A DNA stretch of 39,227 nucleotides from Prevotella sp. (GTDB lineage: Bacteria; Bacteroidota; Bacteroidia; Bacteroidales; Bacteroidaceae), in assembly GCA_017449025.1 (NCBI GenBank), contig JAFSKJ010000052.1, positions 1 through 39,227 on the forward strand. The letters are read 5' to 3'. The notes beneath the pieces were generated by a model that worked only from the letters and a program-made list of their open reading frames with translations, searched no databases and was not told the DNA's origin. Both the position numbers and the translations under genes were made by a program. Shown here in pieces: positions 1,383 to 34,208 of the stretch (positions within the stretch are counted from its first letter, which is position 1; every line of letters begins with the position of its first letter).

Positions 1383-1598
1383 TGGCTTTACCCAAAAAAT
1401 TAACAATCTTTACATGTTACAGGTCAACTAATTGTATGTTCTATAGGTATGTTCTATTAATTATATTTTCTGTAGGGATTGCAATGGGGGTGATTAACCC
1501 CAAAAAACTCACCGAATACATCTCCGTATTTCCTTTTTCCGGTCCCAAGTGTCAACTTTTTTCTTATTTTCCTTATACTTTTCGACCGTGAAACTCGA

Positions 1599-1765
1599 GG
1601 CCTCATCCGTAGAGTGGCACTTTACGGAGCTAAAGTGCCACTTTTTTGAAATTAAGTGGCACTTTACGGCCGTAAAGTGCCACTCCTCATCAGCCATGGT
1701 TCACGACATCTTATGAGAAATTACACGTGTCAGAGATTTTTACTTATCTCGTTCGCGCACGAAAA
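1599..1765. repeat. Nested-hairpin repeat element, copy 1
   Basis: This stretch of about 165 bp is repeated at 20730-20905. Its core is a two-level palindrome. The outer arms, GAGTGGCACTTTACG (1612-1626) and its exact complement (1671-1685), give 15 bp. The inner arms, AAAGTGCCACTT (1632-1643) and AAGTGGCACTTT (1654-1665), give 12 bp around the loop ttttgaaatt. A less strictly conserved right flank, including cgtgtcagag and ttatctcgt, follows in both copies. The minus frame is open and gives a Trp/His/Cys-rich peptide in both copies, which I take as a by-product of the repeat. Confidence 0.85.
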
Positions 1766-3399: not shown

Positions 3400-3472
3400 G
3401 CGGAAATAGCTCAGTTGGTAGAGCACAACCTTGCCAAGGTTGGGGTCGCGGGTCCGAGTCCCGTTTTCCGCT
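3400..3472 (+). tRNA. tRNA-Gly(GCC), copy 1
   Basis: A 73-nt cloverleaf with acceptor arm GCGGAAA/TTTTCCGC and discriminator T. The anticodon loop in CCTTGCCAAGG carries GCC, and the T-loop is GTCCGAGTC. CCA is not encoded. It is the first of four clustered tRNAs and is identical to the copy at 3730-3802. Confidence 0.95.
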
Positions 3473-3518
3473 CAGCTTATTGAGACAAAGAGAGATTAGG
3501 AAGTGGTCCTTATCGTTT

Positions 3519-3600
3519 GCCCAGGTGGCGGAATTGGTAGACGCGCACGTTTCAGGTGCGTGTGCCGCGAGGCGTGCAGGTTCGAGTCCTGTTCTGGGCA
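3519..3600 (+). tRNA. tRNA-Leu(CAG)
   Basis: An 82-nt class II tRNA. Acceptor GCCCAGG pairs with TCTGGGC and the discriminator is A. The D arm is GGCGGAATTGGTAGACGCG. The anticodon loop TTCAGGT gives CAG. A variable arm (tgccgcgaggcgt) follows, and the T-loop is TTCGAGT. Confidence 0.95.
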
Positions 3601-3627
3601 CTCTTTCTCTCGTATAGTGTTTTTGTT

Positions 3628-3711
3628 GGAGAGGTGGCGGAATTGGTAGACGCGCTACTTTGAGGGGGTAGTGTCAATTGCGACGTGGGAGTTCGAGTCT
3701 CCTCCTCTTCA
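3628..3711 (+). tRNA. tRNA-Leu(GAG)
   Basis: An 84-nt class II tRNA. Acceptor GGAGAGG pairs with CCTCTTC (one G-T) and the discriminator is A. The anticodon loop TTGAGGG sits between ctact and ggtag and gives GAG. The long variable arm is tgtcaattgcgacg, and the T-loop is TTCGAGT. Confidence 0.94.
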
Positions 3712-3729
3712 CAATACTTTTCTCACCAT

Positions 3730-3802
3730 GCGGAAATAGCTCAGTTGGTAGAGCACAACCTTGCCAAGGTTGGGGTCGCGGGTCCGAGTCCCGTTTTCCG
3801 CT
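3730..3802 (+). tRNA. tRNA-Gly(GCC), copy 2
   Basis: Identical in all 73 bases to the tRNA at 3400-3472. The two Gly copies bracket the two Leu tRNAs, so the cluster could lose them by recombination between identical ends. Confidence 0.95.
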
Positions 3803-20568: not shown

Positions 20569-20706
20569 AAAATTTTTCGACCTGTGCGGTTGAAAGACGC
20601 TGAAAGCGTCTTTCAACCGCAGCCTTCATTTGTCCGCAGGTCCTTCGGACGCTACTGAGCGGAGACGCTTTCAGCGTCATTTCAACCGCACAGGTCGAAA
20701 TTTTTC
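20569..20706. repeat. Inverted modular repeat block shared with 35.7 kb
   Basis: Arms at 20569-20610 and 20664-20706 are near-perfect inverted copies. Each combines the palindrome GACGCTTTCAGCGTC, the phrase TTTCAACCGCACAGGTCG and an AT tail. Between them lies catttgtccgcaggtccttcggac. The right half (20618-20706) recurs at 35733-35825. Confidence 0.8.
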
Positions 20707-20729
20707 ATAAAAATGGTGTGAAACATATA

Positions 20730-20905
20730 GGCCTCGTCCGTAGAGTGGCACTTTACGGAGCTAAAGTGGCACTTTTTTGAAATTAAGTGCCACTTTACGG
20801 TCGTAAAGTGCCACTCCTCATCCGGCATGTTCCACACGCCATTTCTTATGTAAAATTTTTTCGTGTCAGAGATGTCAGTAAAAAGTGTTATCTCGTACGC
20901 TCGCA
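20730..20905. repeat. Nested-hairpin repeat element, copy 2
   Basis: Second copy of the element at 1599-1765. The outer arms (20743-20757 and 20802-20816) are identical to copy 1. The inner arms are AAAGTGGCACTT (20763-20774) and AAGTGCCACTTT (20785-20796). Compared with copy 1, one C and one G have been exchanged at exactly paired positions (20769 and 20790), so the inner stem stays perfect. The right flank (cgtgtcagag, ttatctcgt) is also conserved. It abuts the modular repeat block on its left. Confidence 0.85.
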
Positions 20906-34136: not shown

Positions 34137-34208
34137 TACACCCGTAGGGAATCGAACCCTAATCTGAAGAACCGGAATCTTCCATTCTATCCATTGAACT
34201 ACGGGTGC
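34137..34208 (-). tRNA. tRNA-Arg(CCG)
   Basis: A 72-nt cloverleaf on the minus strand. Acceptor GCACCCG pairs with CGGGTGT and the discriminator is A. The anticodon arm GAAGATTCCGGTTCTTC gives CCG. The T-loop region is GGGTTCGATTCCC. CCA is not encoded. It lies upstream of the six-gene operon, which has its own promoter. Confidence 0.95.

What the first reader, a model, noticed from the sequence alone, without database searches (positions are those of the whole stretch)
1599..1765. Nested-hairpin repeat element, two copies 19 kb apart, with a compensatory base-pair swap
Both copies (1599-1765, 20730-20905) form a 15-bp outer stem and a 12-bp inner stem. They differ in the inner stem at two positions, C to G at one and G to C at the other, and these two positions pair with each other (1638-1659; 20769-20790). 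The stem is therefore perfect in both copies. This covariation suggests the fold itself is maintained, as RNA or as a DNA cruciform, or is restored by recombination. The outer stem is unchanged. I know of no described function for this element.
Basis: partly seen in the sequence, partly recalled or inferred. Interest (0 to 1): 0.85.

Follow-up and report, generated by a model that had tools for sequence, protein, structure and literature searches.

The report
Dispersed array of 21-bp palindromes
The two hairpins are copies of a multi-copy repeat in a Prevotella-like bacterium, built from short palindromes spaced two DNA turns apart; the paired base swap is not evidence that this genome preserves the fold, but the same spaced palindromes recur in related species and I found no described function for them.

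Summary
Each copy is a tandem array of four 21-bp units, each an imperfect palindrome AGTG-S-CACT with a free centre base. An even-numbered array of palindromes folds into nested hairpins automatically. The "compensatory" pair lies at the centres of units 2 and 3. Over 67 copies it reads GC 43, GG 18, CG 3, CC 3: 21 unpaired against 3 swapped, Fisher p = 0.37. The whole fold shows no clear covariation.

What is unusual is the spacing. In six genomes 121 pairs of AAGTGSCACTT lie 21 bp apart, and freeing the gap from 0 to 30 adds none, although spacers differ. In other Prevotella genomes, two-unit versions are mostly inverted, covary and mostly lie close to gene 3' ends; a broader 21-bp frame with many 7-bp words occurs there. 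I call it a new BIME/REP-like interspersed repeat family. The unit, not the nested hairpin, is probably what is recognised, at DNA level. Function is unproven. No repeat-linked RAYT and no Rfam match were found.

The parts
1607..1627 (+). copy 1, unit 1 (21 bp, centre 1617 = G)
1670..1690 (+). copy 1, unit 4 (centre 1680 = C)
1587..1595 (+). left outer arm CGTGAAACT of copy 1, version of the family arm CGTGAAACAT
1696..1705 (+). right outer arm ATGGTTCACG of copy 1, inverted version of the same arm
20738..20758 (+). copy 2, unit 1 (centre 20748 = G)
20759..20779 (+). copy 2, unit 2 (centre 20769 = G)
20780..20800 (+). copy 2, unit 3 (centre 20790 = C)
20801..20821 (+). copy 2, unit 4 (centre 20811 = C)
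20717..20726 (+). left outer arm TGTGAAACAT of copy 2
20827..20838 (+). right outer arm ATGTTCCACACG of copy 2

Best explanation
Shown: both copies belong to a dispersed, mostly intergenic mosaic repeat family whose core is a tandem array of four 21-bp units, each an imperfect palindrome AGTG-S-CACT with a variable centre base. The nested hairpin follows automatically from an even-numbered array of palindromes, and the C/G swap behaves as free variation at two unit centres. Inferred: the array spreads as an interspersed, recombining repeat (BIME/REP-like), and the thing recognised is the unit itself, most likely by a dimeric DNA-binding protein whose dimers sit on one face of the helix two turns apart. 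The hairpin would be secondary in this genome.
For: 67 core copies in the genome and 252 unit pairs at 21-bp pitch against 2 for the reversed control. Centre bases vary independently. In six genomes the number of exact unit pairs is the same (121 in all) whether the gap is fixed at 10 or free from 0 to 30, although spacers differ; in G414 46 of 47 pairs are at 21 bp. Units next to the pair that was searched for keep the motif in register: mean match 0.51-0.66 against 0.19-0.32 at 7 and 10 units away. Extra in-phase units occur in L058 and L099 and in G276. 17 of 41 classifiable own copies lie between divergent genes, against 21 of 63 background gene pairs, which does not fit a device for mRNA 3' ends.
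Against: No binding protein is identified. Slippage alone would also keep an exact pitch within one lineage. Of 28 stem pairs, 25 are paired in 87% or more of copies, which selection on the fold would give, though recent copying explains it equally well. In other Prevotella species the two-unit form behaves like a hairpin at gene 3' ends. G414 has one pair at 22 bp, and no row of G415, G185 or G369 was listed in the free-gap search.
Confidence: 0.5

Rival explanations
1. RNA hairpin at mRNA 3' ends: a bidirectional terminator or mRNA stabiliser, as proposed for enterobacterial REP elements (recalled). The transcribed arms pair and the fold is selected.
For: In the 'other' group of loci (24 of its 29 given), 20 of 21 measurable ones lie within 44 nt of a gene 3' end and none of the 21 is divergent (background 8 of 45 gene pairs divergent). 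Centres are complementary in 27 of 31 pairs. 20 hairpins from 11 genomes covary. 14 of 17 measurable ones lie within 65 nt of a 3' end.
Against: In the window's own genome 17 of 41 classifiable copies are divergent and same-direction copies show no orientation bias (6 against 7); there is no clear covariation. Direct arrays in E22, RGIG8053 and CAMGFM have equal, not complementary, centres (59 of 66 pairs). Arrays with other words include divergent ones (3 of 20). Several loci counted are orthologues, so not independent.
Confidence: 0.25
2. Selfish repeat only: array length and copy number result from slippage and recombination, with no host function and no dedicated binding protein.
For: Ragged ends, mosaic flanks, variable unit numbers, inner hairpin inverted relative to its flanks in L059 and L088, no array in the 29 relatives' loci fetched around one or the other neighbour gene of copy 1.
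Against: 21-bp pitch with unrelated spacers at unique loci in different species and in-register neighbouring units suggest constraint on motif and pitch.
Confidence: 0.3
3. REPIN mobilised by a RAYT (Y1 tyrosine transposase).
For: Palindromic, inverted, dispersed; outer feet read GTAG on the left in 51 of 67 and on the right in 23 of 66 copies, the tag described for REPs (PMC3733652, passages). The own genome has 3 Y1_Tnp matches over the cut-off and one below it.
Against: Array-rich G185, G414 and G415 have no Y1_Tnp over the cut-off, while G010, G016 and G004, without exact pairs, do. No AGTGSCACT, even with one mismatch, in the loci around the 3 own Y1 genes over the cut-off (the fourth was not looked at). 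GTAG may simply be part of the unit consensus.
Confidence: 0.07
4. MITE with an internal minisatellite, like BrickBuilt of Porphyromonas gingivalis, moved by an IS5-type transposase.
For: Inverted outer arms CGTGAAACAT: with at most 1 substitution left 25 of 67, right 31 of 66, both 15; 0 of 58-61 in each of six control windows. Internal tandem units.
Against: No sharp ends: homology shared with at least 5 other copies stops between -7 and 102 bases left and -9 and 157 right of the core. Target duplications were looked for by eye only, without a convincing one. No autonomous partner was searched for.
Confidence: 0.15

Closest known systems
BrickBuilt MITE/minisatellite of Porphyromonas gingivalis (PMC4596501; abstract, section 5 and part 1 of 2 of section 7 read)
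   Same: Bacteroidales; intergenic; tandem short units (23 nt) inside a longer interspersed element; variable unit number; flanks that can be partial.
   Different: Here the unit is a 21-bp palindrome, the core is usually four units, ends are ragged, and the unit recurs in many species; BrickBuilt was reported with DNA matches in P. gingivalis and homologues in P. gulae.
REP/BIME and REPINs (PMC3733652 and PMC3116915; passages read)
   Same: Dispersed intergenic palindromic units, inverted pairs, clusters, GTAG at outer feet of many copies; 3'-end location in some relatives.
   Different: 21-bp pitch, direct as well as inverted arrays, no RAYT linked to the repeat, divergent regions not avoided in the own genome.
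Bidirectional intrinsic terminators (recalled, general knowledge)
   Same: The two-unit form in other Prevotella mostly has an A-rich, stem, T-rich layout near gene ends.
   Different: Own-genome arrays are not tied to 3' ends, and arrays of 3-5 in-phase units are not a terminator feature that I know of.

Membership tests
Covarying structured RNA family | stem positions change together across copies | tested here: not met
   own genome, 66 copies: 8 doubly changed cells against 5.1 shuffled, 54 of 500 reach it; score 0.033 against 0.028, 23 of 500 reach it, and partners slid by +2 or +3 score higher (0.039, 0.045); centre pair independent
Covarying structured RNA family | match to a curated Rfam family | tested here: not met
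   only tRNAs at gathering threshold, window alone searched
REPIN/RAYT | GTAG tag at hairpin foot | tested here: inconclusive
   left GTAG 51 of 67, right GTAG 23 of 66, both 19; may be part of the unit consensus
REPIN/RAYT | RAYT gene in the genome, flanked by the repeat | tested here: not met
   no AGTGSCACT in the loci of the 3 own Y1 genes over the cut-off; none over cut-off in G185, G414, G415; genomes are incomplete
MITE (BrickBuilt type) | terminal inverted repeats at fixed ends | tested here: inconclusive
   inverted arms in part of the copies but ragged ends
MITE (BrickBuilt type) | target-site duplication or empty site | tested here: inconclusive
BIME-like interspersed mosaic of palindromic units | multi-copy, mostly intergenic, mosaic flanks, palindromic units in tandem | tested here: met
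   13 of 67 copies overlap called ORFs, 12 of them ORFs under 175 aa that I take to be spurious, one of 446 aa
Bidirectional terminator | located just after gene ends, avoids divergent regions | tested here: not met
   own genome 17 divergent of 41; largely met in the two-unit Prevotella hairpins

The most novel reading that the evidence does not exclude
Bacteroidales intergenic DNA carries a previously undescribed class of arrays with a strict 21-bp (two-turn) pitch, made of GC-rich 7-bp 'words' between A/T-rich blocks (AAGTGSCACTT in the window's genome; AATAA-word-TTATT with dozens of words in other Prevotella). A dimeric protein reads the arrays along one face of the helix. Where two neighbouring words are complementary the array has been co-opted as a 3'-end hairpin; where they are equal it has expanded into interspersed repeats such as the one in this window.
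Probability: 0.3. Interest if true: 0.72.

Novelty: new variant of a known kind. Interest (0 to 1): 0.48.

Why it matters
It is a worked case of apparent compensatory change that dissolves once all copies are counted: an array of palindromes with free centres can imitate covariation between two copies. If the two-turn pitch is selected, these arrays point to an unidentified DNA-binding protein, or to an RNA 3'-end system, spread over a number of Prevotella species. It also gives a marker for repeat-driven plasticity in rumen and gut Bacteroidales.

Tried and rejected
Conserved RNA fold in this genome: not supported by centre counts and shuffles. In one search (unit self-palindromes) I misplaced the brackets of unit 3, so only units 1, 2 and 4 of that call are usable; one search gives the correct figures. 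Rfam: nothing but tRNAs in the window. RAYT: disfavoured. Fixed-end MITE: ends ragged; no clear target duplication by eye. Empty-site comparison: relatives too distant; 29 relative loci around one or the other neighbour gene of copy 1 lack the array, which shows no junction. Terminator in this genome: no orientation or 3'-end bias. Literature: sequence strings of the unit matched 11 papers, by their titles unrelated to Bacteroidales repeats (listing only); searches for Prevotella with MITE or palindromic repeat, for Bacteroidetes with REP or RAYT, and for BIME with Bacteroides (listings only, of which searches showed 20 of 503 and 15 of 216 papers) showed no title or abstract start describing this repeat. 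That covers only the open-licence library. Considered but not tested: in-frame 7-codon peptide repeat; intrinsic curvature from A/T blocks near 10.5-bp phase; relation of the outer arms GTGAAACA/TGTTTCAC to parS halves (recalled consensus). The odds given for the readings overlap (the mobilisation rivals and the function readings are not exclusive) and do not add to 1.

Full report
OBSERVATION. The swapped bases are correct. The description stops short of the underlying regularity. AGTGSCACT occurs at 1613, 1634, 1655, 1676 and at 20744, 20765, 20786, 20807, i.e. four times at a pitch of 21 bp in each copy. Tandem Repeats Finder finds the same period unprompted. Each unit is itself an imperfect palindrome around a variable centre base S. 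Unit 1 therefore pairs with unit 4 and unit 2 with unit 3 without any further design.

COPIES. The window is contig C96 of a 3.5 Mb, 80.65% complete genome. The core pattern with up to 3 mismatches occurs 67 times. Unit pairs at 21 bp with up to 1 mismatch number 252, against 2 for the reversed control pattern. Further arrays without the core exist, e.g. L267-L271 with 2 to 4 units. So the host is a Prevotella-like organism (inference).

COVARIATION TEST. Expected under independence from the margins is about 41.9, 19.1, 1.9 and 4.1, and Fisher gives p = 0.37. The outer centre pair is unpaired in 16 of 66, and the pair of columns 26/79 in 20 of 66. Over 28 pairs and 66 copies the nested fold has 8 doubly changed cells against 5.1 +- 1.8 in shuffles (54 of 500 reach it). 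The covariation score is 0.033 against 0.028 (23 of 500 reach it), a marginal value; partners slid by +2 and +3 columns score higher (0.039, 0.045), and the tool warns that related sequences can exceed shuffles. In all, 93.8% of cells are paired, against 30-46% when slid, but the structure was derived from these sequences and recent copying predicts the same. The fold is thus compatible with, but not demonstrated by, these copies.

FORM AND CONTEXT. Copies have outer inverted arms CGTGAAACAT in part, ragged homology ends, flanks shared with other repeats, extra units in L058 and L099, and an inner hairpin inverted relative to its flanks in L059 and L088. Of 67 copies, 41 could be classified: 17 divergent, 11 convergent, 13 same direction (background gene pairs: 21, 14, 28). 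13 more overlap called ORFs (12 of these ORFs are below 175 aa, one is 446 aa), and 13 lie near contig ends or lack a neighbour (simple ORF caller, no gene finder). Copy 1 itself lies between divergent ORFs. The 29 relative loci fetched for one or the other of its neighbouring genes lack an array.

PITCH ACROSS SPECIES. Exact AAGTGSCACTT-N10-AAGTGSCACTT occurs in 18 of 398 genomes of the genus sample, the own genome included; the reversed control has no match in any listed genome. Leaving the gap free from 0 to 30 changes no count in six genomes: 87, 25, 3, 2, 2 and 2 pairs. The rows listed for G000, G022, G115 and G276 are all at 21 bp; those of G185 and G369 were not listed, so for them it follows from the equal counts. 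G414 (E22 bin243) has 47 pairs, 46 at 21 bp and one at 22; G415 (CAMGFM) has 59 pairs, none listed. Three viral contigs also match. Adjacent units not used for the search keep the motif in phase.

TWO ARRANGEMENTS. In E22, CAMGFM and RGIG8053 the centres of neighbouring units are mostly equal (direct arrays: 59 of 66 pairs). In the remaining loci they are mostly complementary (27 of 31). The latter lie close to gene 3' ends: 20 of 21 measurable within 44 nt, none of the 21 divergent, 3 more overlapping called ORFs (24 of 29 loci). A pattern with two free triplets found 20 hairpins in 11 of 398 genomes. Their triplets pair fully in 14, with one G-U in 3 and with one mismatch in 3; 14 of 17 measurable lie within 65 nt of a 3' end. 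The covariation score is 0.145 against 0.060 +- 0.013, 0 of 500 shuffles; doubly changed cells 15 against 6.2, 0 of 500. Only two column pairs change on both sides (2 against 2.3 in shuffles), most others being fixed by the search pattern. Some of these loci are orthologues, and homogenised inverted repeats would look the same, so this supports but does not prove RNA pairing.

BROADER FRAME. In 11 genomes with such hairpins or pairs, AATAA-S-N5-S-TTATT-N4 is tandem at 21 bp, 2 to 20 pairs per genome with up to 2 mismatches. There is none in the control pattern, nor in six other genomes searched, the window's own among them. Exact matches with a free gap gave 23 pairs in 10 of these 11 genomes: 20 at 21 bp, 2 at 42 and 1 at 44. 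In 75 of the 137 pairs I counted 57 different 7-bp words (a word and its reverse complement as one) at 75% GC; neighbours are both more complementary (3.75 against 3.03 of 7) and more identical (3.89 against 3.00) than shuffled, 0 of 2000 each, though overlapping and copied pairs are not independent. Twenty such loci, most chosen for other words, are mixed in context: 8 same direction, 4 convergent, 3 divergent, 3 overlapping called ORFs, 2 edge; 5 of 12 measurable lie within 50 nt of a 3' end, against 23% of random non-ORF positions. So 3'-end location is not general. Homology between this frame and the window's arrays is not shown; they share pitch, A/T blocks and the word GTGSCAC.

MECHANISM. 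What fits best in the window's genome is an interspersed, recombining array whose unit is recognised at DNA level at two-turn spacing; the recogniser is inferred, not found. A purely selfish repeat and a 3'-end hairpin origin remain open. RAYT mobilisation is disfavoured.

KNOWN KIND. The closest described elements I found are BrickBuilt and REP/BIME/REPIN. It shares their style but fails or leaves open the features that would make it a member. I therefore rate it a new variant of a known kind, with moderate interest that rises if the pitch is shown to be read by a protein.

Noticed in passing
L059 and L088 (own genome): The inner hairpin with its asymmetric loop is inverted relative to the outer flanks, suggesting inversion or unit shuffling inside the palindrome.
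   Followed up: partly
window 20570-20700: A different inverted repeat (GCGGTTGAAAG...CTTTCAACCGC type) sits beside copy 2, and similar sequence is seen beside several other copies, so repeats cluster as mosaics.
   Followed up: no
window 1587-1595 and 1696-1705; family-wide: Outer arms carry GTGAAACA and TGTTTCAC, which resemble the two halves of the parS consensus (recalled); could be chance.
   Followed up: no
L275, L279 (G412): Further 21-bp phased units of another kind, AATACTCC...AGTATT, adjoin the AATAA-word-TTATT arrays.
   Followed up: no
window 1607-1690: The 21-bp unit equals 7 codons and one frame across the core looks open by eye (K-W/C-H-F heptads); not tested for coding.
   Followed up: no
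L272, L273, L274 (G412) and L282 (G265): A similar composite array of four words recurs in several places in two species.
   Followed up: partly
L199, L200, L201: Three viral contigs carry the exact two-unit pattern; host origin or true phage location not examined.
   Followed up: no
window 3400-3802 and 34137-34208: Cluster of four tRNA genes plus one more tRNA gene, from the Rfam scan.
   Followed up: no
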